The position numbers and the translations under genes are program-made. Below are positions 20,852 to 53,339 of a stretch of DNA of 58,959 nt, in pieces. The notes under the pieces were generated by a model. The model worked only from the letters and a program-made list of their open reading frames with translations, made no database searches and was not told where the DNA came from. Numbering within the stretch: position 1 is the first letter of the stretch; each line of letters opens with the position of its first letter. Where the stretch lies: assembly GCA_002869615.1 (NCBI GenBank), contig PKUH01000111.1:1-58959 (forward strand), in the 5' to 3' direction. This DNA is from Desulfuromonas sp. (lineage in GTDB: Bacteria > Desulfobacterota > Desulfuromonadia > Desulfuromonadales > UBA2294).

Positions 20852-23266
20852 TCAAAACTCAACCCGGTAGCCGACCGTAAAAAAGTAACCCCGGCGATCT
20901 TCCTGCAGACCAGCAGTCTTTTCACTTGACCACTCGCCACCCCCCTCAAACTCGAAGTGGTATTGTCTTTTCAGGACATAATCCAGCCGCAGGAGGGGCC
21001 GGAACTTCCACAGGCTGCCATCATCTAATTTATTGGTCCGATAGTCGTAAACAACCCTGGGGTTGACACGGAAATTCCGGGTCACGGGATAACGGGTGTT
21101 GACGTTCGCCGAGTAAAGCTTGGAACTGGTGCTGTCCGAATACCTTAATCCGAAAATAGCGATATCACCAACCTTAAACAGACTGCTGCCGATGAGTTGC
21201 AGAGAATAATATAATTCCGTGTCGGTCCCCGGTTGCGCGGCGACACCACCCGAAGCTGGCGTGCTGGAAAACCTCGATGCGGTCACATCGCCGCTGAGTT
21301 GAAATTTTTGCGTCAATGGTTGAGTAACACCAAAAGTATAGGAGGTACTTTTAGCGGTTCTGTCGAGGGCCAGTTGGCGTATTTCTTCATCGGTGTAGAG
21401 CGCCTGTAATTCGCTGATGGAATAGACAGGTTGCCCTTGCAGAGCGTTACTGGTCATCAATACGGGACTGTTGCGGTAATCGACTGACAGGTTCAATGAT
21501 GTTTTACCCGGAAGCTGCCAGTTCGCCGTCAGCAATGCGGTATTCAACTCCGAGTAAGAGGTATCGTAATCGACCAGGCTGAAGAACGACAGGGTCGGAT
21601 CAAAATAACGCACTTCGCCGCCAACCGCCTGCCGATCAAGCACCCCGTCATTTTCCTGGGTAATGTAGTAAGTACTAACATTCCAGCGGTTGGCAAAGGT
21701 CCCCAGGTAAATGCTGACTCCGTAGAAGGGTCGTTCGGTATCGATGGTCGTATCGGCCGCCGAAGCAACAGGATAACCACCGACCAGATTCATTGCCACC
21801 ATGTCATGCAGCTGCCAGCGCAACAAACCGCCATCAAACCGCCCGAGCACGCCGCCACTGCTGCGTGTTTGCCTGCCGATCCGGGCCGACAGATCGATTT
21901 TTCGCGCCAGGGTGTCAATATAGAGGGAACTGATGGTCGATTCGTCTTCACCGTCCGGCAAGTAGTTGTTTTCAAAACCGCCGACAAAGGCCGCGCGCAC
22001 ATCATAATTATCGCTTCGCAAACGGACATTGGCGTCAAGGTTGCTACTCAGGGAATCACGGTTGACGATGTGACCGGTAGTGTCTGAGTTAGTCACATCA
22101 CGATCATAATACTGGTAGAAGCTGCCATATTCCTCAAGCTGCCACTGATTTTCGGACAATGCTTCTTTGGCTTGACGCAACTTTTCCTTTGGCGTTTCAT
22201 GCGCGGTCAACAGACCTGCCAGGCGCTGCTTGACCCGCGCAAATCCTTCAGCTTCAGGATAAAGCTCAAGATAGGTTTCATATTCTGCCCGGGCATGAGC
22301 CAACTGACCGTTGCGCTCCCGGGCCAAACCGAGAAACTCCTGTGCCTGCTGCCGGACACCCGGATCACCGGACTGGACCAGGCGGGTGTAAACCTGAACC
22401 GCGCGTCGATAGTTCCCGGCGATCATTGCCGCCTTCCCTTCATCAAACAATGCCTGCTCATACGCATCGGCACGCAGAGGCCGCGCACTTTTCCCGACGG
22501 TAACAAGAGCCTCCGGTTGAGCTCCGACAGCAGATGATGGAGGAAAAACTTCCCGGGTCAAATGTCGAGTATTCTGCGGTGCCACGGTCACCCAGGCGTG
22601 CGGAAAGTCTTTTTTCAGGCGACCGAAAACTTCATTGGCTGATCGCTCATTGTCGAAAAAGCCGAGCCAGAGGCTATACCAGGGACGTCCATTCTGCGTG
22701 AACTTTGTACTGTAAAGTTGATACCGCTTGAGGAGATCTGGCTGCGGCAAAGCGGCCAGATCAAGCTCGGCCAACTTCGATTCCAGGTTGATCGCATAAC
22801 GGGTTTTTGTTTCGGGAGGAGTCGCCTCTGGGATGTCGCGGGTGACAATAATTTTCAGCAGACGAGGGTCTGCACTGCCCAGCCGATTAAAATACACCTC
22901 ATCTGCAAAGCGAAGCAGCAATTGGACCCGTCCACTTGCATCGGCTTCGTAACTGATCTCGGTCAACGCGCCGCTACTTTGCCGGTTCCAACTCAGATTT
23001 TTCGGACGATCCAGGTCAGAGAGTTGTCTCGGATCGCCAAGGGCGCGCAACTCGATCTGCAGCAGGTCTCCTTTTCCGATTGGCGAATGATTCTGGTATT
23101 GCATCGGCATGCCAAAATTCAGCTCTATCTTGGTCGTCGGTCCGGCGGTTTTGACATCGACTGAATCGACGACCGTTACTTCGGCCAGGGCGAACGCGGT
23201 ACCATCGAGCAGGCCAATACCGATCAGGAAGATAAACAAGGCTATCGCACGAATTGATCGAATCAT
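20852..23266 (-). CDS. AMIN-like/SPOR/TPR outer-membrane beta-barrel protein
   Basis: An 804-residue exported protein. After the signal peptide (1-28) comes an AMIN-like beta domain (about 30-145), a SPOR-like domain (about 160-235: YAINLES ... WYSLWLGFF ... FPHAWVTV), TPR-like helices (about 265-370), then about 400 residues of alternating, aromatic-rich strands ending in VGYRVEF, the terminal Phe typical of outer-membrane barrels. It is the last gene of the six-gene cytochrome operon, and its ATG follows the cytochrome stop directly. Inferred role: outer-membrane conduit or sleeve for the multihaem partner. Confidence 0.8.
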   Translation of the reverse strand: MIRSIRAIALFIFLIGIGLLDGTAFALAEVTVVDSVDVKTAGPTTKIELNFGMPMQYQNHSPIGKGDLLQIELRALGDPRQLSDLDRPKNLSWNRQSSGALTEISYEADASGRVQLLLRFADEVYFNRLGSADPRLLKIIVTRDIPEATPPETKTRYAINLESKLAELDLAALPQPDLLKRYQLYSTKFTQNGRPWYSLWLGFFDNERSANEVFGRLKKDFPHAWVTVAPQNTRHLTREVFPPSSAVGAQPEALVTVGKSARPLRADAYEQALFDEGKAAMIAGNYRRAVQVYTRLVQSGDPGVRQQAQEFLGLARERNGQLAHARAEYETYLELYPEAEGFARVKQRLAGLLTAHETPKEKLRQAKEALSENQWQLEEYGSFYQYYDRDVTNSDTTGHIVNRDSLSSNLDANVRLRSDNYDVRAAFVGGFENNYLPDGEDESTISSLYIDTLARKIDLSARIGRQTRSSGGVLGRFDGGLLRWQLHDMVAMNLVGGYPVASAADTTIDTERPFYGVSIYLGTFANRWNVSTYYITQENDGVLDRQAVGGEVRYFDPTLSFFSLVDYDTSYSELNTALLTANWQLPGKTSLNLSVDYRNSPVLMTSNALQGQPVYSISELQALYTDEEIRQLALDRTAKSTSYTFGVTQPLTQKFQLSGDVTASRFSSTPASGGVAAQPGTDTELYYSLQLIGSSLFKVGDIAIFGLRYSDSTSSKLYSANVNTRYPVTRNFRVNPRVVYDYRTNKLDDGSLWKFRPLLRLDYVLKRQYHFEFEGGGEWSSEKTAGLQEDRRGYFFTVGYRVEF

Positions 23267-25708
23267 CTAAAAACTCCCGTTGGAGCGATGTTCGCTGTTT
23301 CGGCTGCGCGAAATCGTCGACAGGGTACTGTCGGTATAGGTGTGACAGGCGCCGGCACAATTGCGCAGTTCACTGACGGTGTAATAGGCGCCACCACTGA
23401 CTTTCCTATGCTCGTCAGCCCTATAATCGTTGGCGTGGCAGCCGGCACAATCAGGCTTGTAGGCTGCGGTCGGCCAGGCAACAATCTGGCTGTTGCCGGT
23501 ATGGCAGTTCACGCAAGTGACGCTGGAACGATGGGTTCCGGGATATGCAGATGAGCTATGATTGAAACTGATGGTCGCCCAGCCGGTGGTTCGATGACAG
23601 CTGTCGCACTGTTGTGTCGTCACAAAATGCCCGCCCGGAGTACCGGTCGCTGTAGTGCCGTTATGACAGCTGGAGCAAACTCCGGCGGCAGCGGAATGAT
23701 CAAAGCTGGCCGGCGTCCAGGCCAGAGTCGAATGGCAGAGATCGCACGGGCCGCTGGTCTGGATATGGGTGCCCGGTTTGCCGGGAGCAGTTATTCCATT
23801 GTGGCAGCTGGTGCAACTACCGGTAATAGCAGAATGATCCATCCGGACCGTCGCCCAGTTATTGGTGATGTGGCAATCATCGCAATTATTCGTCGAAGCA
23901 ATATGGGTGGCACTCTTGCCTGGAGCCGTGCTGCCGTTGTGACAGCTGTAACAGGTGCCGCTGACGTTGGTGTGATCGATATTCGCCGGCAACCAGGCGC
24001 TGGTGCTATGACACAGATCGCATTGAGCCGTGGTCTGGACATGCGTTGCCGACTTTCCCGGTGCTACCGTTCCGTTATGACAAGTAGTGCAGATGCCGGT
24101 CACGGCGCTGTGATCCATCCGGATCGTCGCCCAGTTATTGGTGACATGACAGGCATCGCAACTGTTGGTCGAAGTAATATGGGTGGCACTCTTCCCCGGA
24201 GCGGTGCTGCCGTTGTGACAGCTGTAACAGGTGCCGCTGACGTTGGTGTGATCGATATTCGCCGGCAACCAGGCGCTGGTGCCATGACACAGATCGCATT
24301 GAGCCGTGGTCTGGACATGCGTTGCCGACTTTCCCGGTGCTACCGTTCCGTTATGACAGCCGGAGCAGGTGCCGGTCACGGCGCTGTGATCCATCCGGGT
24401 CGTCGCCCAGTTATTGGTGACATGACAGGCATCGCAATTATTGGTCGAAGTAATATGGGTGGCACTCTTCCCCGGAGCGGTACTGCCGTTGTGACAGCTG
24501 CCACAACTGGCCGTGATTGACGTATGGTCTACTTTACCCCCGACAAAGGTTGTTGTCGTATGACAGGCATCGCATTGGACAGTGGTCTGGACGTGGGTCG
24601 CCGACTTGCCCGGCGCCACCGTTCCGTTATGACAGCCGGAACAGGTACCGGTCGCCTGGCTGTGATCCATTGCTACACTGGCCCAGGCCGCTGCGACATG
24701 GCAGGCATCGCAACTGTTGGTCGAAGTGATGTGATTCGCAGGTTTACCATGAACCGACGACCCGTTGTGGCAGTTGAAGCAGGGGCCGGTTGCCAGGGAA
24801 TGATCATAGGTGGCATCAATCCATACGGTCGGCCGGTGACAGTTTTCGCAGTTATTGTCGCTGGCAATATGGCGGCTCGTTTTCCCCGGGATCGGGTTGC
24901 CGTTGTGACAGCTGAAACAGGTTTGTGTTATTGAGTTGTGATCAAAAAATGTCGCTTGCCAGCTGATCGTCGAGTGACAGGCGGAACAGAGACCACTACT
25001 GGCCGGATGATTCCCCGGTTTGCCAATGGCCATACTGTTATTGTGACAACCTGAGCAGTTAGCCGTGGTTGCCAGGCTATGGTCCATCCTGACCTTTGAC
25101 CAGGCCTGGGACGCGTGACACAGGTCACAATCCCCCTGTGTCGGAATGTGGTTAGCCGATACCCCTTGAGCCGCGATCCGGCCGCCACCGGAGTGACAGG
25201 GGGAGCATTGTCGTGGTGTCCCCTTGAAGATCCCATTCACATGACAACGCCCGCAGCGGAGGTTCTCATGCTCACCCTCGAGTGGAAAGCCGGTCGTAAA
25301 GTGATCAAACGATGGGCTTCTGACTGCTGATTCAGCCGGCTTTTCGGCGCTTGAAACAGCCTGTGCCAGCTGTTTTTCGCTGACGGAAACCCGGGTTATC
25401 CAGGCGTCCGGATAATTCTTTCGCCAGCGGTCCAGAGCAGCTTCGGCGTCCGACATGCTCGAAAAGAACCCAAGGCGCAGCCGGTGCCAGGTCTGCCCGT
25501 CTTTCCGGAACAGGGTCTGATAACCGAGTTTACCCATACCGACATTGTCGATTGCGCCCACAGGCGTTAAGGATGATTCAAGATTGAGCGCATAAATGAC
25601 GGTTGAGGGTCCGGCGGAATGGACAGGGGCCGGGATCAGAAAAAAACCGAGGATCAGCAGGCTCAGAAACAGACTCCGTACGGACTGAAAGAAAGGTTGA
25701 TATCTCAT
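23267..25708 (-). CDS. 27/28-haem c-type cytochrome with N-terminal SPOR-like domain
   Basis: A protein of about 813 residues with signal peptide (MRYQPFF ... HSA), then a SPOR-like domain (about 35-115: YALNLES ... WHRLRLGFF ... YPDAWITRV) resembling that in the barrel protein. The rest carries 27 CxxCH motifs plus one CAGACH near the C-terminus. Haem motifs alternate with D-H or N-H pairs (MDHS, IDHT, FDHS) that may give distal ligands. Much of it is a 92-residue, four-haem unit repeated in tandem. The ATG at 25708 gives a normal signal peptide; ATG at 25759, 3 bases after the previous stop, is also possible. Expected in periplasm/outer membrane. Confidence 0.92.
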   Translation of the reverse strand: MRYQPFFQSVRSLFLSLLILGFFLIPAPVHSAGPSTVIYALNLESSLTPVGAIDNVGMGKLGYQTLFRKDGQTWHRLRLGFFSSMSDAEAALDRWRKNYPDAWITRVSVSEKQLAQAVSSAEKPAESAVRSPSFDHFTTGFPLEGEHENLRCGRCHVNGIFKGTPRQCSPCHSGGGRIAAQGVSANHIPTQGDCDLCHASQAWSKVRMDHSLATTANCSGCHNNSMAIGKPGNHPASSGLCSACHSTISWQATFFDHNSITQTCFSCHNGNPIPGKTSRHIASDNNCENCHRPTVWIDATYDHSLATGPCFNCHNGSSVHGKPANHITSTNSCDACHVAAAWASVAMDHSQATGTCSGCHNGTVAPGKSATHVQTTVQCDACHTTTTFVGGKVDHTSITASCGSCHNGSTAPGKSATHITSTNNCDACHVTNNWATTRMDHSAVTGTCSGCHNGTVAPGKSATHVQTTAQCDLCHGTSAWLPANIDHTNVSGTCYSCHNGSTAPGKSATHITSTNSCDACHVTNNWATIRMDHSAVTGICTTCHNGTVAPGKSATHVQTTAQCDLCHSTSAWLPANIDHTNVSGTCYSCHNGSTAPGKSATHIASTNNCDDCHITNNWATVRMDHSAITGSCTSCHNGITAPGKPGTHIQTSGPCDLCHSTLAWTPASFDHSAAAGVCSSCHNGTTATGTPGGHFVTTQQCDSCHRTTGWATISFNHSSSAYPGTHRSSVTCVNCHTGNSQIVAWPTAAYKPDCAGCHANDYRADEHRKVSGGAYYTVSELRNCAGACHTYTDSTLSTISRSRNSEHRSNGSF
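23605..24985. repeat. 276-bp tandem coding repeat in the cytochrome gene
   Basis: The codon group for the CDxCH motif recurs at 23605, 23881, 24157, 24433 and 24709, always 276 bases apart (92 codons, four haems). Units between about 23880 and 24500 are almost identical at the DNA level; the outer ones have diverged. This is protein-coding amplification, not a CRISPR array. Confidence 0.9.
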
Positions 25709-25762
25709 ACAAAATATTCCATTCATCTGTATTTTTCTCTGCGACAGGGGTAAAAACATAAC

Positions 25763-27406
25763 CTATCTCGTTATCCTGAGTTGTTTGAAATCTTTACTAA
25801 TATGGCACCGGTCGCAATCGCGACCAAAATCGCCGCGATGGATATCGTCCTTGCGGTGACAGTTGCCACAGCTCTTGCCGATGCGGATTTTTTCTTTAAC
25901 CGGGTCCCGGTGGCAGGCGACACATTCAAGAGAAGCATGCGCTCCCTCAAGCTTGAATTTTGTCCGGGTATCGTGATCGAACAACCAGAGGTCCCAGCCA
26001 TTCGGATTATGGCAGGCCGCGCAATCCTTCCCCAGTCGCTGTTTATGGCGATCGTCCTTGCCGTGGCAACCAGCACAGTCGCCTGATACGTTCTTGAATG
26101 TCGTTTCGAGATGGCAAGATTCACAGGGGACTGTGGCATGAATTCCGATCAGCGGGAAACGACTCAGATCGTGCTCAAACCTGACATCGACCCGCCAGCC
26201 CCTCTGATTATGACAACTTTCGCATTGTTTTCCCTGCTGCAAGCGATGTGCATCATCCAGCTCATGACAGCTGAAACAGTTGGTCGCCTTTTTTTTCTGT
26301 TCCTGCCGGTTGCCGGAGTGACACTTGCTGCAAGCCAGTTTACTGTGCTTGTACCGCAACGGAAACTTCGTCTTGTCGTGATTAAACTGGCCCTTCTTCC
26401 AACCGGTGGTCTGATGGCACTCCTCGCATTTATTGCCGAAGCGGCCACGATGCAGGTCTTCCGAACGGTGGCATGATGCACAACCCGGATCCAGATTCTG
26501 ATTGTAAAGCTGTCGAGGATGACATGCGATGCACTGAACCTGCCGATGCTTGTTTTGCAGCGGGAACTTGGTCCGGCTGTGATCGAACAGAACAAACTTC
26601 CATGCCGAGGCCTGTTTATCAGTCAGCTTCTGCGCTCCTTCCGGGGTATGGCAGTTTTCGCATTTCTTGCCATAATTTCCCTGATGGCCGTCATTGAGCC
26701 GATGACAGGCGTAACAAGCACGCGGGACCTCTTTCCATCGCTGATTCGGGTGACAGAGGGCACAGCTGATTTTCCGGTGCCCGCCCAGCAACGGGAATCT
26801 CGTTTTTTCGTGGTTGAAACGGGTTTCTGCCCAGGTTGTGGATTTATGACAGTTCTGGCACTCTTTGCCCAGACGCCCCTTGTGAGGTTCAATCTCCTTG
26901 TGACAAAAAACGCACTGGCTGGCAGCGTTCCTGAATTTTCGTTTCTCCCACTCTTTTATTTCAGGTTTATTGAGAAGCTCCGGCTTGAGCTTATTCGGAT
27001 TGTGGCAGCCACTGCATTGAACATGCAGGTGTGCACCGATCAGCTCAAAATCAGTTTGGCGATGGTCAAAAGTCTCCGCGTCGAGCAGAACGATGTCGGC
27101 GGTCCGCCCCTGGTGCTCCGGGTGACACAAACTGCACTCCTTTTGCGCCGCATCCCGGTTTCTGCCATGAAACCCGGTCTTGCGCCGGAGATCCCCGTCG
27201 ACCTGCTTGTGACAGTCGAGACAAAGCCGGCCCTGTGAGGTCTTACTGAACAGTTGGTGGCAGCGTTTGCACTCACTTTCATACCGGGCGTGCCCCTCAA
27301 TCACCGGACCGGGCATGACCAGTTGCACCACTTCGGCCTGCGCCTGCTGAACAGACAGCGACGGGAGCAGCAAAGCAATCAAAATAATAATGAAGAGTCT
27401 GCACAT
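25763..27406 (-). CDS. 21-haem c-type cytochrome
   Basis: A 547-residue exported cytochrome with a signal peptide (MCRLFIIILIALLLP ... AQA) and 21 CxxCH motifs spread evenly, about one per 25 residues. Repeated blocks such as FDHSRTKFPL/FNHDKTKFPL, each followed by a K/H-rich segment and CxxCH, suggest an extended chain of similar modules; the conserved F-x-H may supply distal haem ligands. Start at 27406 preferred over the TTG at 27424. It lies between the membrane cytochrome-b-like gene and the SPOR cytochrome gene, suggesting a periplasmic link. Confidence 0.92.
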   Translation of the reverse strand: MCRLFIIILIALLLPSLSVQQAQAEVVQLVMPGPVIEGHARYESECKRCHQLFSKTSQGRLCLDCHKQVDGDLRRKTGFHGRNRDAAQKECSLCHPEHQGRTADIVLLDAETFDHRQTDFELIGAHLHVQCSGCHNPNKLKPELLNKPEIKEWEKRKFRNAASQCVFCHKEIEPHKGRLGKECQNCHKSTTWAETRFNHEKTRFPLLGGHRKISCALCHPNQRWKEVPRACYACHRLNDGHQGNYGKKCENCHTPEGAQKLTDKQASAWKFVLFDHSRTKFPLQNKHRQVQCIACHPRQLYNQNLDPGCASCHRSEDLHRGRFGNKCEECHQTTGWKKGQFNHDKTKFPLRYKHSKLACSKCHSGNRQEQKKKATNCFSCHELDDAHRLQQGKQCESCHNQRGWRVDVRFEHDLSRFPLIGIHATVPCESCHLETTFKNVSGDCAGCHGKDDRHKQRLGKDCAACHNPNGWDLWLFDHDTRTKFKLEGAHASLECVACHRDPVKEKIRIGKSCGNCHRKDDIHRGDFGRDCDRCHISKDFKQLRITR

Positions 27407-27420
27407 AATTTCTATTCGGA

Positions 27421-28950
27421 TCAAAACATGTGTACAGCGATGACGTGAACGATACCGGCGACGATCAACAACACGAACATCGGCATATGAAACAGGTGCC
27501 AGAGAGCAAAAAATCTCTCAAAAAAGCTGAACTCGGCCACCCGTAAGACTGCCTCAAGATGCCTGGAGATCAATATTCGGTCAGCTTTGAGCTGTCGCTT
27601 CAACTCCTGCTTTGGCCAGTCATTGCGCTTCGCGGTGATTTTCAGTGCCCGCCGCAATCCCCACAACAGAACCCTGCGGGTCCAGCGTTTGCGAATATTT
27701 ATGACAATGACCCGCAGCAAACCCTGAATTGCCCCGCTCGGGGGGGTCAATACCAATTTTTCGAAATTGAGTAGCCGTTGCCTGAGCATCGGTGCGTAAA
27801 CAAAAACGTAGGCCAGGTTATTGTGATTGGAAGTGATCTCCTTGCTCATTTTGCTGAGAGTGAGCCGCTCGCCATGCAGACCATAATGAATCCGGGTGTA
27901 CAGATAGCGCCCGAAAAAACCACTGAGAGCAATCAGCAAGGTACAACCGAGGACAACGGCACTGTTGATGGAGCCGAGACTGAAGTTGGCATGGAACAAA
28001 ACCAGGATCGGTCCGAGGATACCGAATACCACATGGGCGCTGAACCAGTGGCGGGTCGCTCCCCAGTTACGCATCAGGCGATTTTTTTTGCGCAATGGAT
28101 AGAGCAGCTGTGAAACCATTGCCAGGCCGCCGATAATGCCGAAGAGATAACCGACGCCCTCTTTCGGGATCAGGTACTGTTCGCCTCGCAGCAACCAGCC
28201 CGCAACCAGAACACTGATCGCCAGAAAGTACCCCGGCATGCTGATCCAGCGTGATGTCGGGGCGGCAAACATATCCTGTGTCGCCTCAGTTGAAGCCCCG
28301 ACTTCAGCAGGTTCCGGGCTGCTTTCGGGAGCCGCTGCAGTTTTGCTTTCAGGTGCTGGAGCATCCACCGGTACGGCCGGAGAAGAAGGTTCGGCGTCGA
28401 CCGGGGCAGCCGGTTTGAGATACTGTTCCCACTGGGCAGTAACCGACTGTTCCCATTCCGATATCGCCAGATGTTCCCATTCGGCGACGGGGGTCAGATG
28501 CCATTCGGCCAGAGACGACAGCTTCAGCTGATGCTGATCAGGGTTGTCGCCCAAAGCGGCGGCAACCTTCTCGATTTTTCGCAGCTGCTCCTGTATGGGG
28601 TGGCGCTGGGCAACCGTTAATTTTTTCAGTCGCAGGCCTTGCTGCAACAGGTTGATGGCTTTTCTCAGCCGACCCCTCTTCAGGTGGCATTGAGCCCCCA
28701 TGACGATACAGTCGACCAATCGGCCGGGACTGTTGGACGCCATGGAAAAGTTTTTCAGGGCACGATCGTACAAGCGGTTTTTGTAGTTGGCCATCCCCAT
28801 GGAGTACTGTTGCTCAAACTCTCCGGGTTCGACGATATGTTGCTGAATACTGTCAACACTTGCATCCGCCTGCCGGCCCGGACGGTCCTGGCGCAAGCGG
28901 GTCGGCCGCTTTTGTTCCGCAGATACTTGCTTTTTCTGTGCAGAATTCAT
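27421..28950 (-). CDS. TPR plus cytochrome-b-like membrane protein
   Basis: A 509-residue protein. Residues about 40-135 look like a TPR region (YSMGMANYKNRLYDRALKNFS), then a Pro/Ala/Glu linker (about 175-235), then several membrane segments (about 240-330 and the C-terminus). Histidines sit in or beside them: RHWFSAHVVFGILGPILVLFHANF and HLFHMPMFVLLIVAGIVHVIAVHMF (in parts). These could ligate haem b, as in NapC/ferric-reductase-like or DUF4405-like modules; I cannot name the family. Inferred role: quinol or flavoprotein to periplasmic cytochrome transfer. ATG at 28950 with AAAGGATC upstream. Confidence 0.75.
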   Translation of the reverse strand: MNSAQKKQVSAEQKRPTRLRQDRPGRQADASVDSIQQHIVEPGEFEQQYSMGMANYKNRLYDRALKNFSMASNSPGRLVDCIVMGAQCHLKRGRLRKAINLLQQGLRLKKLTVAQRHPIQEQLRKIEKVAAALGDNPDQHQLKLSSLAEWHLTPVAEWEHLAISEWEQSVTAQWEQYLKPAAPVDAEPSSPAVPVDAPAPESKTAAAPESSPEPAEVGASTEATQDMFAAPTSRWISMPGYFLAISVLVAGWLLRGEQYLIPKEGVGYLFGIIGGLAMVSQLLYPLRKKNRLMRNWGATRHWFSAHVVFGILGPILVLFHANFSLGSINSAVVLGCTLLIALSGFFGRYLYTRIHYGLHGERLTLSKMSKEITSNHNNLAYVFVYAPMLRQRLLNFEKLVLTPPSGAIQGLLRVIVINIRKRWTRRVLLWGLRRALKITAKRNDWPKQELKRQLKADRILISRHLEAVLRVAEFSFFERFFALWHLFHMPMFVLLIVAGIVHVIAVHMF

Positions 28951-28983
28951 CAATGATCCTTTAAAAAAGAAAGTCCGGTTTTA

Positions 28984-31011
28984 CTACAAGCCAAAAATCC
29001 GGCCGCCGGATGTCCCCCGGTTTTTGATCAGGTCACGAATCTGGTCATTGGAGGCCAGTGCCTCTGCCTGTAGATCTTTCTTGTTGCGCAGATGAGTCTT
29101 GGCTTTGCTGTCGAGCAGCAACCGGACTGCGGTTTCACGTCCTGCCGCAGCGGCGAGGATCAACGCTGTATTGCCGTTCTGATTCTTGTGGTTGATATCG
29201 TCAACGACAGGGATGAGTAGTTCCATGACGGCGGTATGGCCGTTGATCGCGGCCAGGGCCAGCGGCGTATTCCCTTCGTTGGTCGCGACATCCGGATTAG
29301 CCTTCGCCTGCAAAAGAGCCGAAACAGTGGCCGTATGCCCCTGCCGGGCGGCGACGGCCAGAGGAGTCACCCCGGCCTTGTCGCGCACGCTGTGTTTTGC
29401 CTTGCGCTGCAGAAGAATGGTTACGACCTCCCGGTGCCCTTCACGGGCGGCAAGCCATAGAGGGGTGGCCCCCTGCGGACTAACCACATCGACTATGGCC
29501 CTGGCGCTTAAGAGTTGCTTGACAACCGGCAGATGACCTGATTGAGCAGCGTAAGCCAGTGCGGTTCGACCCGCCAGATTTGTGCGGTTGGCATCGGCAC
29601 CGGCGGCAAGCAGCACCTTGACGATGGCCAGGTTTCCGTCACGCGCAGCACCAATCAGGGGGGTGCTGCCATCTTTTTCCGGTTGATCAATTTTCGCTCC
29701 GGCGCGCACAAGACGCCGGACTATTTCCGGCATATCCTGCTCGGCAGCCCAGGAAAGGGGTGATTTTCCTTCGGTCAAACCGGTATCTGGATCGGCACCG
29801 GCATCAAGTAGAGACCGAATGATTTTTTTCTGCCCCTGTCGTGCTGCCAGGCTTAGCGCACTATGGCCCAGAGGATCACGACCATTAACCTGAGCCCCTT
29901 TTTGCAAGAGGTTGCTGACCGTACTCTCCTGTCCGAGCCAACAGGCGGTCATTAATGTTGACCAGCCCGCAAAGGGATCGGCATTTTTCTTGGCACGGTT
30001 ATTCGGTGAAGGCGGCGGCAGCACATCGGCCAGTGACAGGCGAGGGCCCCGTTCAATTTTTTTATTTTCAGGCGGAGCGGCACCCTGAGCCACCAGATAA
30101 GCTGAAAGGTTGCGATGACCGCGACTTTTGGCAAGGCGCGCCGCTGTCCAGCCTTCATCGTTAGCCAGGTTCAGATCGGCCTTTGCCTCAATCAGCTGAT
30201 CTACCAGGCCCTGGTCCCCTTTCCCTGCCGCAATAATCAAGGGCGTATTGCCATGGATGTCCCGGGTATTGACGGGAGCCTGTTTCCGAGTCAGAACCCC
30301 GACCGTTGTCAGCTGCTGATGGCTGGTCGCCAGCAAGAGGGCGTCATCGCCATAGATATCTCGAGATCTGATATCTGCCCCCCTGGCGAGAAGGGTTTTC
30401 ACGACTTCAACATGCCCCTCTCTGGCCGCCAGTATCAGTGGGGTATGTTGTTGGGCATCCCGGCAATTCGGATCGACGCCTTCGTTCAAAAGTTGCCGAA
30501 CCTTCGCCAAGTCACCTCTGTCGGAAAACCTGAGCAGAGCCTGCTGTTGCCGCTCCGGAGTCGATGACTGGCCAGCCCCCTGATCTTCGCCGACTGCTTT
30601 TCCTCCGGAATCTGGCGGAGAGAGAACTCCATTCGTCTCGGCAGTAGCCAGCCAGTTTCTGGCTGCAGCAGGGTCAGCAGGAACGCCACTTCCATTCCTG
30701 TACATGACACCAATACTGTGCTGAGCCCTTGGATCGCCGTGTTTTGCTGCCTTGAGCATCCATTTCGCCGCTTGTTTCAGATCGGTCTCGACCCCGCGTC
30801 CGCTCCGGTAAAGACCGGCGAGCAGGAACTCGGCATCACGATTCCCTTGCTCGGCAAGAGGCCTCAGCAGCTGAACAGCCCGGTTATAATCGCGCACCCT
30901 GATTGCGGCGCTGATCCCTTCCGGCAGTTCAGCCCGAACCGGCTTTGCTTGCACCAGCAGAGAACATGCAAGGAACAGCAGGCAGATAACTGACAACTTA
31001 TGGCGTCCCAT
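28984..31011 (-). CDS. Exported Sel1/ankyrin-repeat protein
   Basis: A 675-residue protein with signal peptide (cleavage near VRA-ELPEG), Sel1-type helices (about 40-120: DAEFLLAGLYRSGRGVETD, DPRAQHSIGVMYRNGSGVP) and then about a dozen ankyrin repeats (about 155-660; e.g. GHTATVSALLQAKANPDV). Such solenoids are protein-protein scaffolds. Placement inside a cytochrome operon suggests it organises the periplasmic electron carriers, which is inference. It overlaps the end of the upstream FeS-flavoprotein gene by 14 bases. Confidence 0.88.
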   Translation of the reverse strand: MGRHKLSVICLLFLACSLLVQAKPVRAELPEGISAAIRVRDYNRAVQLLRPLAEQGNRDAEFLLAGLYRSGRGVETDLKQAAKWMLKAAKHGDPRAQHSIGVMYRNGSGVPADPAAARNWLATAETNGVLSPPDSGGKAVGEDQGAGQSSTPERQQQALLRFSDRGDLAKVRQLLNEGVDPNCRDAQQHTPLILAAREGHVEVVKTLLARGADIRSRDIYGDDALLLATSHQQLTTVGVLTRKQAPVNTRDIHGNTPLIIAAGKGDQGLVDQLIEAKADLNLANDEGWTAARLAKSRGHRNLSAYLVAQGAAPPENKKIERGPRLSLADVLPPPSPNNRAKKNADPFAGWSTLMTACWLGQESTVSNLLQKGAQVNGRDPLGHSALSLAARQGQKKIIRSLLDAGADPDTGLTEGKSPLSWAAEQDMPEIVRRLVRAGAKIDQPEKDGSTPLIGAARDGNLAIVKVLLAAGADANRTNLAGRTALAYAAQSGHLPVVKQLLSARAIVDVVSPQGATPLWLAAREGHREVVTILLQRKAKHSVRDKAGVTPLAVAARQGHTATVSALLQAKANPDVATNEGNTPLALAAINGHTAVMELLIPVVDDINHKNQNGNTALILAAAAGRETAVRLLLDSKAKTHLRNKKDLQAEALASNDQIRDLIKNRGTSGGRIFGL

Positions 31012-32317
31012 ATTTCGTCTCCACCAGCACTCCGCTATCTTTCAGAAAGCCGGTCGGCAGAATGCCGCCGGCGCAGATAATGACCGCATCGTTCTCCAGT
31101 TCCAGATCTTCCCCTTCAAATTCGAGCCGGACCTTGGTTTCAGTGATCTCCTTGACCTGGGACTTGAGCAGAATCTGCAACCGGCCGGCCTCACCGGTCT
31201 TTTTCGCCAGATCGACATTTTTCGGTTTGGCTCTGGAGAACGCCTCGCTCCGGTAGGAGATGGCCACCGTGGTCCCCGGTTCGGCAGCAATACTGGTTGC
31301 TGCTTCAAGGGCACTGTCGCCACCGCCGACAACCAGCACTTTCTGGCCGCGGTACTGTTGCGGATCGATCAACTGGTAAACCACCTTGGGCTGGTTTTCA
31401 CCCGGTACATCGAGTGTTCGTGGCGTCCCGCGGCGCCCCAGGGAGAGCAAAACGGTACGGGTCTGATAACTGCCATTATTGGTTTTAACTTCAAACCCCT
31501 GGTCATTCTTGCGGATCATTTCCACCCGCTCCTGATAGTTGATCTTGACTCCGGTTTTTTTCTCTGCCGACAACCAGAAGGCCATCAATTTCTCCTTGGT
31601 GGTTTCCTTGAAATTAACCTTCCCGAGCAGCGGAATCTCAACCGGTGCCGTCATGACCAGCTTGCCACGCGGAAATTTCGAGACCGTCCCCCCCAGGGTG
31701 TCTTGCTCAATGGTCTTGGTGCGCAACTTGTGACTCTTGGCACTCAAGGTTGCGGCAAAACCGGCCGGACCGGCACCGACAATCAGAACATCGAGTTGGT
31801 TCCCACGACCGATCCCTTCAACTTTGCGAATCGATTCCATCGCCGCACACCCCTGGCGAATCGCATTGCGGATCAAGCCCATACCGCCCAGTTCGCCGGC
31901 GATGAAAAGTCCGGGGACATTGCTTTCAAAGTTCGGCTTGACCTTGGGAATATCGACCCCACGCGTCTCTGTGCCAAAAACCAGAGTGATCGCGTCCTGA
32001 GGGCAGGCTGCCGCGCAGGCGCCGTGACCGATACAGTGGGTCGGTTCGATCAGGGTCGACTTGCCGTTGATCAGACCGAGAACATGATGCCCGCCCTGCT
32101 CCGGACAGGCATTGATACAACACCCGCAGCCGAGGCAGCGATTTGTATTGATCACGGGATGCAGCGAGGCCGGTTCAGTCAGACCGGCTTCAACCGCCTC
32201 TTTTTGCAGGGAAAGGTTCCGGCTTTCAATCCGTTTTTTTCGCCAGACAAAGAGCCACCAAAGGGCTCCCATCAGGGCCGGATAGACCCATAAGTCGGTC
32301 AAGGCAATTGTGGTCAT
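30998..32317 (-). CDS. Membrane-anchored FeS-flavoprotein oxidoreductase
   Basis: A 439-residue protein with one N-terminal membrane segment (about 8-26), a ferredoxin-like domain and a thioredoxin-reductase-like FAD/NAD(P) fold. Cluster motifs are CLGCGCCINACP (classical) and CIGHGACAAACP, where the second cluster has His in place of the second Cys (CxxHxxCxxxCP). FAD site: VGAGPAGFAA; pyridine nucleotide site: VGGGDSALEAA. First gene of the operon; it would be the entry point for electrons from NAD(P)H or ferredoxin. Direction and donor are inference. Confidence 0.88.
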   Translation of the reverse strand: MTTIALTDLWVYPALMGALWWLFVWRKKRIESRNLSLQKEAVEAGLTEPASLHPVINTNRCLGCGCCINACPEQGGHHVLGLINGKSTLIEPTHCIGHGACAAACPQDAITLVFGTETRGVDIPKVKPNFESNVPGLFIAGELGGMGLIRNAIRQGCAAMESIRKVEGIGRGNQLDVLIVGAGPAGFAATLSAKSHKLRTKTIEQDTLGGTVSKFPRGKLVMTAPVEIPLLGKVNFKETTKEKLMAFWLSAEKKTGVKINYQERVEMIRKNDQGFEVKTNNGSYQTRTVLLSLGRRGTPRTLDVPGENQPKVVYQLIDPQQYRGQKVLVVGGGDSALEAATSIAAEPGTTVAISYRSEAFSRAKPKNVDLAKKTGEAGRLQILLKSQVKEITETKVRLEFEGEDLELENDAVIICAGGILPTGFLKDSGVLVETKYGTP

Positions 32318-32377: not shown

Positions 32378-32412
32378 AATAAAAAAGGCCGCCAGAGTTT
32401 CCTCTGGCGGCC
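32378..32412 (-). terminator. Riboswitch expression-platform terminator
   Basis: GGCCGCCAGAG and CTCTGGCGGCC pair perfectly around a four-base loop and are followed on the minus strand by TTTTTTATTTT. It lies directly after the GEMM aptamer and 61 bases before the start of the FeS-flavoprotein gene. The end of the aptamer (CCGGGCC) overlaps the hairpin foot, so folding can be mutually exclusive. Confidence 0.88.
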
Positions 32413-32510
32413 CGGCTGACAGTCGGTTCATGGCAAGCGCCATGTCCTCAAGCCCCGAAGCTCTGCGTCCCAGGGTTTCCCCTGGTTTGCTTTGAGCAAA
32501 GGTTACTGAA
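32408..32510 (-). promoter_or_regulatory. GEMM-I riboswitch (cyclic dinucleotide)
   Basis: Minus strand: AAAGCAAACC, a hairpin with GAAA tetraloop (CCAGGG/CCCTGG), GGGACGCAGAGC, TTCGGGGCTTGAGGAC, the hairpin ATGGCGCTTGCCAT, and CAGCCGGGCC. This is the GEMM-I order (GCAAACC, P2 with GNRA loop, GACGCAAAGC, receptor hairpin, AGCCGGG). By my alignment to Vc2, position 20 is A, as in the GEMM-Ib type that answers to cyclic AMP-GMP in Geobacter. It is followed by a terminator and controls the cytochrome operon. Confidence 0.82.
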
Positions 32511-34422: not shown

Positions 34423-35505
34423 TCAGAGGAGAATTCCCTTGAGCCCGCTGAGCAGCCGCAGGTTTTCCTGCGCTCCGCGAACAGCGATCCTGAAATATCG
34501 CTCATCCAGAGAAACAAAATCGCTGCAATCACGAATCAGCACTCCCTGCTGCAGGAGAACCTGGCTCACCGTACCGGCGGTTCGCCCATCTTTGGGCAAG
34601 CGAACTAGCAGATAGTTGGCATCAGAGGGATATACATGAAGGTTCAAGGCGCGGAGACCATCGACGAGCTGCTGCCGCCACTGCGGTATCAGCTTAAGGC
34701 TGCGCTCCCGGTAATCTTTCTCGAGCAGACAGGACCGGGCCGCGGCGATGGCCGGTGTGGCCAGCGTCCATGGCGCCGAAAAAGAGCGCAATTGCTGAAT
34801 CAGTTCAGATGAAGCGGCGAGGTACCCGGCGCGCAAACCGGGGATTGCATAAAACTTGGTCAGAGAGCGCAAAACAATAAGGTTTGGCCGCTCATCAACC
34901 TCTTCAATGATCGAAAGCTCCGGGCAAAAGTCGATAAAAGCCTCATCGACCACCAGCAGACAGTTCTCCGGCAACCGGTCGGCCAGTTGCTGCAGCCCTT
35001 TCCGCTCAATTCCAGTACCGGTCGGGTTGCCCGGGTTGGCGAGAAAAACAAGGTCGGTAGTCCCGTCAACCGCACTCAGAACCTTTTCAGCGTCAAAGCT
35101 GAAATCATCATCTGCTGACAGGGCCACTGTTTCCGTTCGACAGCCGACCTGCTGCAAACTTCGAGCATATTCACTGAACGCCGGGGCAACAATCAAGGCT
35201 TTCGCCGGCCGGAAACAGCGCGGAACAAGATAGATCAGTTCGGTCGAGCCGGACCCGGCGAGAAAATTTGCATGATCGAGTTCGTAGCATTCGGCGAGAC
35301 GATCAATGAACGATGCGGCATCAACTTCCGGGTAGTGAATCGATGTTGAAATGGCATCGACCGCCGCCTTATGAACCGCTTCCGGCATGCCGAGGGGATT
35401 GATGCTGGCTGAAAAATCGAGGATTTTCTCGAGGGGCAAACCGAGCTCCCGGGTCGCCTGAAAAACCTTGCCGCCGTGCGTCGAATTTACATCTGAAATA
35501 GCCAT
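34423..35505 (-). CDS. cobD: Threonine-phosphate decarboxylase CobD
   Basis: A 360-residue PLP enzyme of the aminotransferase class I/II fold, in the branch that decarboxylates L-threonine phosphate to (R)-1-amino-2-propanol phosphate, the linker of the cobalamin lower loop. The PLP lysine is in SLTKFYAIPGLRAGYL, and FLANPGNPTGT binds the cofactor. Histidinol-phosphate aminotransferase is the close look-alike, but its position overlapping cbiB by 19 bases within a cobalamin operon favours CobD. Confidence 0.9.
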   Translation of the reverse strand: MAISDVNSTHGGKVFQATRELGLPLEKILDFSASINPLGMPEAVHKAAVDAISTSIHYPEVDAASFIDRLAECYELDHANFLAGSGSTELIYLVPRCFRPAKALIVAPAFSEYARSLQQVGCRTETVALSADDDFSFDAEKVLSAVDGTTDLVFLANPGNPTGTGIERKGLQQLADRLPENCLLVVDEAFIDFCPELSIIEEVDERPNLIVLRSLTKFYAIPGLRAGYLAASSELIQQLRSFSAPWTLATPAIAAARSCLLEKDYRERSLKLIPQWRQQLVDGLRALNLHVYPSDANYLLVRLPKDGRTAGTVSQVLLQQGVLIRDCSDFVSLDERYFRIAVRGAQENLRLLSGLKGILL

Positions 35506-36431
35506 GACAGAAATACCCCCAATCCAAGAGTTAAGAAAGCCGTGACGTACATCAAGCGGATCATCGCCCGGTAACGCCCGATATTGATCTGGCGATCAGG
35601 ATCACCGAGAAACGGTTTTTCGACCATTTCACCGAAATACCTGGCCGGACCTCCGAGCTGAATTCCTAAAGCGCCGGCTGCGGCAGCTTCGGGGTATCCG
35701 GCATTGGGGCTGCTCGTCTTGCGGGCGTCACGCAGCATTACCTTGAGCGCCGCCCAGGGATTAAGTGCCAGCGGAAACGAAGCGATGACCATCAACAATC
35801 CGGTCAGACGGGCCGGCACCAGGTTGAGCAGATCATCAAAGCGGGCCGAAACCCAACCCATTTCACGGTAGCGATCATCGCGATAGCCAACCATTGAATC
35901 GAGTGTATTCGCCGCTTTGTATATCATTGCCAGCACCGGTCCTCCGAGGAACAGATAAAAGAGCGGTGCGATCACACCATCCGAAGTGTTTTCGGAAACC
36001 GTCTCGATACAGGCCTGCAGGATCTGCTCCTCATCGAGTTTGGCCGTATCCCGTCCGACGATCAGGGAGAGGGATCTTCTGGCCGCATCCAGCTGACCTC
36101 TCTCGACCAGATGCACCACTTCCCGACTCTCGATATGCAACTGCCGCAGGGCGATTGTCGTATAGGCGAGATAAAGCGATATCAGGCCGTGGATAACCGG
36201 GTGCAGGCGTAAAGCAACCAGCAGCACCAGCCAGGTCAGACCGCCGGTCACCGCGACGACGGAGCCACACAGGAGGAACCCGGCCAGCTTACGGTTGTCG
36301 AGCATGCTGGCCAGCAGCAGCTCGAGCCAGTTGATCAGGGTACCGATATAGATAACCGGGTGATGCATGAACCGGGGATCACCGACCAGCAGGTCGAGAG
36401 CAAAAGCCGCAAGCAATAACCAGATATCCAT
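35487..36431 (-). CDS. cbiB: Adenosylcobinamide-phosphate synthase CbiB
   Basis: A 314-residue inner-membrane protein with about five membrane segments. Conserved blocks are LLVGDPRFMHHPVIYIGTLI, the SENTSDGVIAPLFYLFLGG motif, and YKAANTLDSMVGYRDDRYREMGW. CbiB attaches aminopropanol phosphate to adenosylcobyric acid. It sits between the cbiH/P fusion and cobD, which makes its substrate. Confidence 0.94.
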   Translation of the reverse strand: MDIWLLLAAFALDLLVGDPRFMHHPVIYIGTLINWLELLLASMLDNRKLAGFLLCGSVVAVTGGLTWLVLLVALRLHPVIHGLISLYLAYTTIALRQLHIESREVVHLVERGQLDAARRSLSLIVGRDTAKLDEEQILQACIETVSENTSDGVIAPLFYLFLGGPVLAMIYKAANTLDSMVGYRDDRYREMGWVSARFDDLLNLVPARLTGLLMVIASFPLALNPWAALKVMLRDARKTSSPNAGYPEAAAAGALGIQLGGPARYFGEMVEKPFLGDPDRQINIGRYRAMIRLMYVTAFLTLGLGVFLSWLFQM

Positions 36432-36440
36432 AAGACTATG

Positions 36441-38756
36441 CTACCCTGCAAAGCCGATCAGGGCAAAAATTTTCTGCAGATCAAGATGTTCTTCAAGGTG
36501 TGCCGCCAAGCGGTCGAGCTCATTCTCCAGTGATAGCTGTAACGGCGCCGCCTTGCGAACCTGGCCACGATCATGCCAGAGTTGGTCAATCAGAACCCGC
36601 CGCAGTTCCGGGTTGTCAAAAAGACCATGCAGATAGGTTCCCCAAACCCGGCCATCGGGAGATATCGCACCATCGGCAAGGTCAACCGGCGAACCGGAGC
36701 GGCTGCGCAACCGCACCAACGGTCGGGCCAGGGGGCCACAGGTGGTATCGCCCATGTGGATTTCATACCCGCTGAGCTGTCCAACACCGGAAAAACCATG
36801 CGCGAGCGCTGTCTCGAAAAATTCCGCTGTAACCCGGTGAGTCTGTTTGTCCGGCATCATACGGGTCTTTATATCGAGCAGGCCAAGGCCGGAGGTTTCC
36901 GGAATATCTGACTCGACGCCGTCCGGGTCTGACAATGTCCGCCCGAGCATTTGCAGCCCGCCGCAAATTCCGGCGACCCTTTTACCGTTCGCATGAAATT
37001 CGCGAACAGCTTCGGCGAATCCGCTTTCGACCAGCCAGAGCATGTCCGACAAGGTATTTTTGGTCCCGGGAAGTATCAGCAGATCGCAATCCGAAACCGT
37101 GGTCGGATCCTCAAGATAATCAAGACAAATATCCTTCTCGGATGCCAGGGTATCGAAATCGGTATAATTGGAGATGCGCGGCAGTCGAATCACACCGATC
37201 TGCAGGCAACCTTCTTTATGCGAGGCAGATTTTCGTGACAGGGCGACCGAATCCTCTTCCGGAAGGTCGATCTTGAGCCAGGGGACAACACCGACAACCG
37301 GGATCCCGGTTCGATCCTCGATTTGCCGCAGACCGTCGGTCAATAGCGTGGCATCGCCACGGAAACGGTTGATCACCAGCCCCTTGACCCGGCTCTTTTC
37401 CGCCGGTGCGAGCAGCTCGATGGTTCCGAGCAAGGCGGCAAACACGCCGCCACGATCAATATCGGCAACCAGCAAAACCGGAGCATCGGCCATTTCTGCC
37501 GCCTTCAGGTTGGTGATATCATGCGCCTTGAGGTTGATCTCGGCAATACTGCCGGCACCCTCGAGGATAACGACATCATGTCGGGATGCCAGCCGCCGAT
37601 AGGCCGCTTCGACCTCGGAAAACAGTTCCTTTTTTCCGGCATGGTATTCCGCGACCGTCCGGTTGCCGGTCGACCGACCGAGCACGACCACCTGGCTTCC
37701 GGTGTCGGAATTCGGTTTCAGAAGAATCGGGTTCATATCGACATGCGGCTCGAGCCGACTGGCCGCTGCCTGCAGGGCCTGGGCCCGACCGATTTCGCCA
37801 CCGGCGGGAGTGACCGCCGAATTGAGTGCCATATTCTGCGCCTTGAACGGCGCCACATTAACACCCCTGTCATTGAGCAGCCGACAAAGGCCGGCGGTCA
37901 GGACACTCTTGCCGACATCACTGCCGGTGCCACCGATAAAGAGAGACCTGGCCATTTCCCCGGAGGCGGATTGTCGGTCCGCCCCCGCTCTCTTGACCGC
38001 CGGTACTTCATGCTTTTTTTCATAACCGCGCGGTGTCACCATCCTGCCGCCCGGGTCGATTCTGGTCTGGCTGTTACCGATGATGACCAGACTGAACATA
38101 TCAACCCCGGCGACCGAAAAACTTGCGAGTTCGCCGGTCTCAACGGTCTCATCAGCACGGGTTGCATGGCGGACAATACCGACCGGGTTTGCCGCCGCGC
38201 GGTGACGCAGGATAATCTGCCGCGCCGCATCGAGGTGGCCAGGTCGACCCTTGCTCCGGGGATTATAGAGTGCGATGACAAAATCTGCCGAAGCGGCAGC
38301 TTCAAGACGTTGCCGAATCAGCGGCCACGGGGTCAGTAGATCGGAAAGTGAAATAACAGCAAAATCGTGCATCAACGGCGCCCCGAGACGGGCGGCGGCG
38401 GCCTGCACCGCCGAGACCGCCGGCACAATTTCAACCTCGGGACCATCGGCACCGGCCAATTCAAGAGTGAGCCCGGCCATACCGTAGACTCCCGCATCAC
38501 CACCTGAGACCAGAGCTACAGTCCTGCCGGCTGCCGCAAAGGCAATGGCCTTTCGGCAGCGATCGACCTCCTGACGCATGCCGGAGGAGACAACATCCTT
38601 ACCCTGGAGAAAGGGCGTAATCAGCTCAAGGTAGGTCTTGTAGCCAACCACCGTATCGGCGCTTTCGATGGCACTTGCCGCTGCCGGTGTCAGATACTCG
38701 ACGCCCCCCGGCCCGATGCCGACTACATAAAGTTTTCCGGTTTTGTCGGAGTTCAT
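36441..38756 (-). CDS. Fusion: CbiH (C17-methyltransferase) + CbiP (cobyric acid synthase)
   Basis: A 771-residue fusion. Residues about 8-245 are a tetrapyrrole methylase of the CbiH/CobJ type (VVGIGPGGVEYLT, SGGDAGVYGMAGL), which methylates C17 and contracts the ring. After a short Lys/Arg-rich linker (about 245-270), residues about 270-765 are CbiP/CobQ: P-loop-like GTGSDVGKS, EGAGSIAEINL, the glutaminase Cys in GICGGLQML and His in TYLHGLFD. CbiP amidates four side chains of adenosylcobyrinic a,c-diamide. The two activities act far apart in the pathway. The start overlaps the cbiG stop (ATGA). Confidence 0.92.
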   Translation of the reverse strand: MNSDKTGKLYVVGIGPGGVEYLTPAAASAIESADTVVGYKTYLELITPFLQGKDVVSSGMRQEVDRCRKAIAFAAAGRTVALVSGGDAGVYGMAGLTLELAGADGPEVEIVPAVSAVQAAAARLGAPLMHDFAVISLSDLLTPWPLIRQRLEAAASADFVIALYNPRSKGRPGHLDAARQIILRHRAAANPVGIVRHATRADETVETGELASFSVAGVDMFSLVIIGNSQTRIDPGGRMVTPRGYEKKHEVPAVKRAGADRQSASGEMARSLFIGGTGSDVGKSVLTAGLCRLLNDRGVNVAPFKAQNMALNSAVTPAGGEIGRAQALQAAASRLEPHVDMNPILLKPNSDTGSQVVVLGRSTGNRTVAEYHAGKKELFSEVEAAYRRLASRHDVVILEGAGSIAEINLKAHDITNLKAAEMADAPVLLVADIDRGGVFAALLGTIELLAPAEKSRVKGLVINRFRGDATLLTDGLRQIEDRTGIPVVGVVPWLKIDLPEEDSVALSRKSASHKEGCLQIGVIRLPRISNYTDFDTLASEKDICLDYLEDPTTVSDCDLLILPGTKNTLSDMLWLVESGFAEAVREFHANGKRVAGICGGLQMLGRTLSDPDGVESDIPETSGLGLLDIKTRMMPDKQTHRVTAEFFETALAHGFSGVGQLSGYEIHMGDTTCGPLARPLVRLRSRSGSPVDLADGAISPDGRVWGTYLHGLFDNPELRRVLIDQLWHDRGQVRKAAPLQLSLENELDRLAAHLEEHLDLQKIFALIGFAG

Positions 38757-47417: not shown

Positions 47418-47492
47418 CAGATGTGAAAACAAATCACACCTTTTCCTCCGGCCGCCTTTACCTTGAGCGAACGGGTTGGCACGTCATGTGCC

Positions 47493-47645
47493 GGATTCCG
47501 GACAGGCTTTCTGGCTTCGGGATCGCCCTTTCCTCTCCCCTTCCCGAACAGCTTATCACTGTTCAGTGGTTTTCGAGAGGTCAGTCCCCCGTCACAGCGG
47601 CGGGTCCGCGGGGGAATCGCACCCCCTTTCCTGCATCCGGAATCT
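47493..47645 (-). promoter_or_regulatory. Cobalamin riboswitch 1 (cbiX-cobD operon)
   Basis: The minus strand shows the class landmarks in order: P1 GATTCCGG, GGGTGCGATTCCCCCGCGG, CCGCCGCTGTGACGGGGGA, CCACTG, the long hairpin arm, and CCCGAAGCCAGAA followed by GCCTGTCCGGAATC closing P1. It precedes cbiX by about 145 bases with a terminator between. Binding of adenosylcobalamin should lower expression of the synthesis operon. Confidence 0.93.
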
Positions 47646-47669
47646 AGAATCTATCCGGCCAGAATGCCG

Positions 47670-53041: not shown

Positions 53042-53094
53042 TCAAGCATAACTTGGAAACCCGAACCTCTCCCGCGAAGGTCATTACGGAACAG

Positions 53095-53240: not shown

Positions 53241-53339
53241 TTTACTGCGGCGGACACCCGAAAGCGTTGTACTCAATATTAATGTCCGACCTTTGTAGCA
53301 AAGGAAAAAGGCCGGTGTCAATCAATCATAGCGAATCGA

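What the first reader, a model, noticed from the sequence alone, without database searches (positions are those of the whole stretch)
20852..32317. Six-gene trans-envelope electron conduit with 21- and 27/28-haem cytochromes
Order of transcription: membrane-anchored FeS-flavoprotein, Sel1/ankyrin scaffold, TPR/cytochrome-b-like membrane protein, 21-haem cytochrome, 27/28-haem SPOR cytochrome, AMIN-like/SPOR/TPR beta-barrel. Genes overlap or nearly touch, and together they could carry electrons from a cytoplasmic carrier through both membranes (or inward). It differs from the MtrCAB, OmcB-type and Ext conduits in having an FeS-flavoprotein and an ankyrin scaffold. From memory it recalls the PCC3-type clusters with very large cytochromes proposed from iron-oxidiser genomes.
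Basis: partly seen in the sequence, partly recalled or inferred. Interest (0 to 1): 0.82.

Follow-up and report, generated by a model that had tools for sequence, protein, structure and literature searches.

The report
Riboswitch-controlled PCC3 electron conduit operon

Summary
The six-gene operon is real (21 CXXCH; 27 CXXCH plus one CX3CH). It is a PCC3 porin-cytochrome cluster, not a new conduit type: the membrane protein has both WX3HX13H motifs and SGxxG, the barrel is predicted with 22 strands, the periplasmic cytochrome has 21 haems, residues per haem are 25-28. The FeS-flavoprotein and Sel1/ankyrin genes are no peculiarity: they adjoin PCC3 genes across Proteobacteria, usually divergently, including in the published PCC3 host Amphritea atlantica. 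New here: PCC3 in Deltaproteobacteria/Desulfobacterota, and a GEMM-I riboswitch with terminator (32386-32502) directly ahead of the first gene. It precedes the flavoprotein gene in 12 genomes; among named loci it occurs in 5 of 6 collinear clusters and 0 of 59 divergent ones. All 14 copies carry A at the ligand-selecting position (cGAMP type). P1 and terminator share a strand, so ligand should switch transcription ON, as in Geobacter metallireducens pilM. The genome has two GGDEF enzymes with the signature of cGAMP synthases. Electron direction, and whether the flavoprotein feeds the b-haem protein, remain inference.

The parts
32386..32413 (-). Intrinsic terminator, GGGCCGCCAGAG-GAAA-CTCTGGCGGCC then T-run; its 5' arm contains the 3' strand of aptamer helix P1
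32401..32502 (-). GEMM-I (c-di-GMP-I family) riboswitch aptamer including P1 (32497-32502 with 32401-32406); ligand-selecting position 20 is A at 32491
   Evidence: Rfam RF01051 50.8 bits over gathering 35; P1 and comparison with 14 copies
30998..32317 (-). FeS-flavoprotein: N-terminal membrane anchor, two ferredoxin-like cluster sites (one with His in place of a Cys), thioredoxin-reductase-like FAD/NAD(P)H domain
28984..31011 (-). Sel1 + ankyrin repeat protein with signal-peptide-like N-terminus (presumed periplasmic)
27421..28953 (-). PCC3 inner-membrane protein: extra N-terminal TPR part, then the membrane part with two WX3HX13H and SGxxG (two b haems expected)
25763..27424 (-). 21-haem cytochrome (presumed periplasmic)
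23267..25759 (-). 27/28-haem cytochrome with N-terminal SPOR domain; 22 successive haems spaced exactly 23 residues
20852..23266 (-). Outer-membrane protein: AMIN-like and SPOR-like domains, TPR, then 22-strand beta-barrel (residues 376-803)

Best explanation
The operon encodes a PCC3-type porin-cytochrome conduit whose transcription is switched on by a cyclic dinucleotide, most likely 3',3'-cGAMP. Without ligand the leader folds into the terminator. Ligand stabilises aptamer helix P1, which uses the same strand as the terminator's 5' arm, and RNA polymerase reads into the six genes (inferred from structure; ON logic as in the pilM cGAMP riboswitch). In the envelope, electrons pass between the cytoplasmic side and the outside through the di-b-haem membrane protein, the 21-haem cytochrome and the 27/28-haem cytochrome held by the 22-strand barrel; SPOR domains on both the big cytochrome and the barrel tie them to peptidoglycan (inferred). 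The membrane-anchored FeS-flavoprotein probably exchanges electrons with the b-haem protein on the cytoplasmic side, a split module laid out like NADPH oxidases/ferric reductases (inferred, weaker). Direction is not settled.
For: PCC3 motifs and conservation (definition in PMC5566968). Barrel: 22 strands, pLDDT about 93, Foldseek hits to outer-membrane barrels. Synteny in three families of the same order and beyond. Riboswitch ahead of the flavoprotein gene in 12 genomes; in the class search 7 of 277 genomes have the flavoprotein and all 7 have operon and riboswitch. A at position 20 in all 14 copies; J1/2 length and the G8-C76 and C75 equivalents match the cGAMP aptamer. P1/terminator overlap. 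Ser + GGDEF cyclases in 7 of 8 genomes looked at. Flavoprotein near the membrane-protein gene in 45 of 47 loci with enough flank. IMP model resembles SpNOX, rmsd 2.8 A over 117 residues.
Against: No functional data; no PCC3 has been tested (PMC12442390). Position 20 is described as a selectivity factor, not a hard filter. The SpNOX match has Z 8.8, within the range of chance for helical proteins, and Foldseek alone gave no significant IMP match. No Ser-type GGDEF was seen among the hits examined in G022. The collinear Nitrospinaceae cluster L113 lacks the riboswitch.
Confidence: 0.72

Rival explanations
1. Same conduit, but the riboswitch senses c-di-GMP in the cell, so the operon belongs to a general biofilm response.
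For: Rfam family is c-di-GMP-I; most GGDEFs in the genome are canonical Asp types; position 20 is only a selectivity factor.
Against: A20 in 14 of 14 copies while the same genome also has G20 copies; two Ser + GGDEF cyclases.
Confidence: 0.18
2. The conduit works inward: electrons from Fe(II), an electrode or a partner cell enter and are passed to oxygen and to NAD(P)+ through the FeS-flavoprotein (reverse electron flow).
For: PCC3 occurs in iron oxidisers; the genome has two haem-copper oxidases and no dsrA; in L073 and L075 genes with the layout of a cytochrome c oxidase operon lie just upstream.
Against: In Geobacter the cGAMP regulon serves Fe(III) reduction (PMC6456294); multihaem conduits are reversible.
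Confidence: 0.4
3. The b-haem protein exchanges electrons with the quinone pool, as proposed for PCC3, and the FeS-flavoprotein has another job (for example redox maturation of haem-binding cysteines, as its nearest solved relatives are disulfide reductases).
For: He 2017 model; nearest solved chains are thioredoxin reductase and YpdA; in most genomes the flavoprotein/ankyrin pair is a separate divergent transcript.
Against: The flavoprotein has its own iron-sulfur cluster sites and membrane anchor and lies beside the IMP gene in nearly all loci; it is the first gene of the collinear operon.
Confidence: 0.35
4. The 27/28-haem cytochrome is periplasmic, bound to peptidoglycan by its SPOR domain, and stores or spreads charge rather than reaching outside.
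For: N-terminal SPOR domain homologous to that of the barrel protein.
Against: The barrel gene directly follows; second cytochromes of PCC3 vary widely in haem number, as surface wires might.
Confidence: 0.2

Closest known systems
PCC3 porin-cytochrome cluster (He et al. 2017, PMC5566968; Gallionellaceae, PMC10734462)
   Same: Four core parts, IMP motifs, 21-haem periplasmic cytochrome, large second cytochrome, residues per haem, large barrel
   Different: Deltaproteobacterial host, IMP with an added TPR part, collinear six-gene operon including flavoprotein and ankyrin genes, riboswitch leader
cGAMP (GEMM-Ib) riboswitches ahead of electron-transfer genes in Geobacter (PMC8835794, PMC9262584)
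   Same: Aptamer class, A at the selecting position, terminator mutually exclusive with P1, Ser-type GGDEF cyclases in the genome
   Different: Controls a PCC3 conduit, in a lineage for which the papers read here do not report it
NADPH oxidase / ferric reductase transmembrane domain (SpNOX 8qt6)
   Same: Two HX13H helices expected to hold two b haems; flavin dehydrogenase on the cytoplasmic side
   Different: Dehydrogenase is a separate FeS-flavoprotein of the thioredoxin-reductase type; acceptor is a multihaem wire
MtrCAB/MtoAB and Geobacter OmcB/Ext conduits
   Same: Barrel plus multihaem cytochrome design
   Different: 21 and 27/28 haems instead of 10 (Mtr); the DmsE/MtrA-type model TIGR03508 matches only far below cut-off

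Membership tests
PCC3 | Inner-membrane protein with two WX3HX13H motifs and SGxxG | tested here: met
   Sequence of P0004; haem-ligand His and SGxxG columns invariant over 22 PCC3 IMPs
PCC3 | Periplasmic multihaem cytochrome of about 21 haems | tested here: met
   21 CXXCH; location from signal peptide only
PCC3 | Second, larger multihaem cytochrome (published median 34), extracellular | tested here: inconclusive
   Haem number 27+1 fits; location unknown, SPOR domain argues for at least a periplasmic N-terminus
PCC3 | Large outer-membrane barrel | tested here: met
   22 strands predicted at pLDDT about 93, hits to outer-membrane barrels
PCC3 | Low residues per haem (22-39) | tested here: met
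   25 and 28
PCC3 | Homology to a published PCC3 host | tested here: met
   Amphritea atlantica DSM 18887 (L119): IMP 33%, MHC21 42%, FeSflav 62%
PCC3 | Extracellular electron transfer | not testable with these tools
   No assay; unproven for any PCC3
GEMM-I riboswitch (RF01051) | Score above gathering threshold with consensus fold | tested here: met
   50.8 bits vs 35; pairs hold in 96.7% of cells over 8 copies
cGAMP (GEMM-Ib) subclass | A instead of G at Vc2 position 20 | tested here: met
   A at 32491 and in all 14 PCC3-linked copies
cGAMP (GEMM-Ib) subclass | cGAMP binding | not testable with these tools
   Needs in-line probing or ITC
Hypr GGDEF | Ser at the substrate position with GGDEF, not GGEEF | tested here: met
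   Two in own genome, G000:C1:9713 and G000:C91:51312
MtrA/DmsE decahaem family | TIGR03508 above cut-off | tested here: not met
   84.5 and 26 bits vs cut-off 192.2

The most novel reading that the evidence does not exclude
A cGAMP-switched conduit that runs from cytoplasmic NAD(P)H to the outside (or back) without the quinone pool: FeS-flavoprotein plus di-b-haem protein form a split NOX-like module that couples directly to a periplasm-spanning 21-haem wire.
Probability: 0.25. Interest if true: 0.82.

Novelty: new variant of a known kind. Interest (0 to 1): 0.64.

Why it matters
PCC3 is a widespread but functionally untested conduit. Here a conserved regulatory RNA ties it to a messenger (cGAMP) known from Geobacter to control extracellular metal respiration, which is independent evidence that PCC3 serves extracellular electron transfer and gives a handle to turn it on. 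It also adds two proteins, a FeS-flavoprotein and an ankyrin protein, to the PCC3 parts list across Proteobacteria, and widens the reach of cGAMP-type control. The riboswitch claim can be tested with one RNA.

Tried and rejected
Name look-up with P0004 alone in genome contigs found nothing; the FeSflav alignment was used instead. phmmer of the 21-haem protein against PDB: no hit. The IMP profile against PDB returned TPR chains from its N-terminal TPR part. Foldseek of the IMP: no significant match. The idea that flavoprotein and ankyrin are peculiar to this cluster was rejected. The idea that the riboswitch belongs to PCC3 in general was rejected: 0 of 59 divergent loci and none in a plain PCC3 of the same order (L078). 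A strict DNA pattern for Ser-type GGDEFs missed four genomes because of one residue (R for T) and was replaced by reading the domains. Organism name not resolved beyond relatives deposited as Deltaproteobacteria.

Full report
OBSERVATION. The six ORFs are present on the minus strand as described, in transcription order 32317 to 20852. A script counts 21 CXXCH in P0003 and 27 CXXCH plus one CX3CH in P0002. Pfam shows FeS and FAD/NAD(P)H domains in P0006, Sel1 and ankyrin repeats in P0005, multihaem domains in P0003 and P0002, and SPOR in P0002; in P0001 only TPR is found, weakly, and its SPOR-like region was recognised by alignment to that of P0002. Genes overlap or nearly touch; the largest gap is 30 nt.

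WHAT IT IS. The membrane protein P0004 contains WX3HX13H twice and SGxxG, the motifs He et al. [quoted passage not shown] Over 22 homologues the haem-ligand histidines (columns H85, H99, H267, H281) and the SGxxG residues are invariant, and the set includes Amphritea atlantica DSM 18887 and Bradyrhizobium sp. STM 3843, both named as PCC3 hosts in that paper. The 21-haem periplasmic cytochrome, a larger second cytochrome and 25-28 residues per haem fit as well. AlphaFold2 on 18 sequences predicts residues 376-803 of P0001 as 22 strands at pLDDT about 93, preceded by small beta, SPOR-like and TPR domains; Foldseek places it among outer-membrane barrels.

FLAVOPROTEIN AND ANKYRIN PROTEIN. A search of genome contigs with the flavoprotein alignment kept 80 loci. 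In 47 loci with at least 3.5 kb on both sides, 45 have the PCC3 membrane protein, 44 the 21-haem-type cytochrome and 38 the ankyrin protein. In Gamma-, Beta- and Alphaproteobacteria the pair FeSflav-Ank is usually divergent from IMP-MHC-MHC-barrel. The published PCC3 text mentions neither; figures and supplements could not be read. These 80 loci were chosen by similarity to the window's flavoprotein, so the rates apply to that set.

THE RIBOSWITCH. Rfam finds a c-di-GMP-I aptamer at 32403-32501 on the minus strand, 86 nt ahead of the first start codon, followed by a 12-pair terminator and T-run. The same element lies ahead of the flavoprotein gene in L072 (G106, which has a second one mid-operon), L073, L074, L075, L076, L077, L098, L104, L105, L125 (two in tandem) and L165: 12 genomes with the window, 14 copies. 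L096, L097 and L098 are the named records of G106, G095 and G530 and are not counted twice. Among the 80 named loci, 5 of 6 collinear clusters and 0 of 59 divergent ones have it; the collinear exception is a Nitrospinaceae cluster, L113. L105 and L125 carry the riboswitch but their contigs end before the order can be read. In the class-level search 7 of 277 genomes carry the flavoprotein and all 7 have operon and riboswitch. Several of the 12 are congeners, so they are not all independent. The genome holds 16 such aptamers in 3.08 Mb, so one this close ahead of a given gene by chance is improbable (inference).

LIGAND AND LOGIC. At the position equivalent to Vc2 G20 all 14 copies have A. In the cGAMP aptamer P1 ends at G8-C76, J1/2 is A9-A14 and C75 pairs the ligand (PMC6274999; PMC9262584); here G32497 pairs C32406, J1/2 is six nt ending in A32491, and C is at 32407. 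The G20 site is described as a selectivity factor, not a hard filter, and a G20A mutant binds cGAMP. P1 (CCUUUG/CAGAGG) and the terminator 5' arm share a strand in every copy, as in the ON-acting pilM cGAMP riboswitch (PMC9262584). The pairs of the fold hold in 96.7% of cells over eight copies, with changes on both sides at two P2 pairs. In the unbound MFE of the window's leader the terminator forms. Of 17 GGDEF matches in the genome, two carry Ser at the substrate position together with GGDEF, the signature of cGAMP synthases (PMC6456294); G093-G096, G106 and G530 also have one, G022 none among the hits examined. G. sulfurreducens likewise has two such enzymes and 17 GEMM-I riboswitches (PMC8835794).

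MECHANISM. Shown: gene content, motifs, predicted barrel, conserved leader. Inferred: electron path IMP - 21-haem - 27/28-haem - outside, cGAMP activation, role of SPOR domains as peptidoglycan anchors. The big cytochrome's 23-residue haem period and near-identical 276-bp DNA repeats (93%) suggest it grows and shrinks by repeat copying, as seen in relatives with 19 to 49 haems. The flavoprotein has one normal [4Fe-4S] site and one in which a Cys is replaced by His; the His is present in all 68 loci where the motif could be read (part of this set was recruited by a CIGHGAC pattern, so the rate is biased). Its nearest solved relatives are thioredoxin-reductase-type enzymes. The predicted IMP superposes on SpNOX at 2.8 A over 117 residues, Z 8.8; for helical models this is suggestive only, and Foldseek alone gave no significant match. 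Together they suggest a split NAD(P)H-oxidase-like entry, rival to the quinone model of He et al.

DIRECTION. Unsettled. For uptake: two haem-copper oxidases and no dsrA in the genome, genes with oxidase-operon layout next to the cluster in L073 and L075 (recognised by layout and sequence, not by a family search), PCC3 in iron oxidisers. For output: the cGAMP regulon of Geobacter serves Fe(III) respiration.

NOVELTY. Searches of the held library found no paper joining PCC3 with a riboswitch, and He et al. report PCC3 only from Alpha-, Beta- and Gammaproteobacteria. A 2025 survey of conduits in Desulfobacterota has no mention of PCC3 by that name (read in part). Absence in this library is not proof of absence in the literature. 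Verdict: new variant of a known kind.

Noticed in passing
G000:C53:14475 (L043; L087 1991-2084): Another A20 riboswitch 25 nt ahead of a 4-haem cytochrome gene followed by ORFs of 1713 aa (36 haems) and 1058 aa (21 haems): probably the same regulon.
   Followed up: partly
G000:C81:12038-12115 (L045; L089): Aptamer with C at the ligand-selecting position upstream of giant cytochromes with 17, 12 and 10 haems; ligand unclear.
   Followed up: no
window 30998-32317, protein residues 95-105: FeS-flavoprotein second cluster site reads CxxHxxCxxxCP: a conserved His replaces a cluster Cys.
   Followed up: partly
L072:5849-5967: A second riboswitch of the same type with its own terminator inside the operon, between the 21-haem gene and an extra 12-haem copy.
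   Followed up: partly
L125:9590-9876: Two such riboswitches in tandem ahead of the flavoprotein gene.
   Followed up: no
L073:13287-13658, L074:7896-8294, L074:11772-12248: Small ORFs resembling only the N-terminal part (SPOR region) that in the window is fused to the big cytochrome or the barrel.
   Followed up: no
L073 and L075, upstream of the operon: Genes with the size and order of a cytochrome c oxidase operon lie within a few kb; annotation not checked by family search.
   Followed up: no
window 23835-24727: 276-bp tandem repeats (4 haem units each) at 93% identity inside the 27/28-haem gene: recent repeat expansion.
   Followed up: partly
window 34423-39823 and 47484-47655, 53084-53276: Cobalamin biosynthesis genes (CobD, CbiB, CbiH/CobQ fusion, CbiG) and two cobalamin riboswitches.
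   Followed up: no
L192, L194: More distant flavoprotein homologues (49-51%) near 47- and 35-haem cytochromes and a weak IMP homologue, a possible further PCC subtype in the phylum; no R1 riboswitch near.
   Followed up: no
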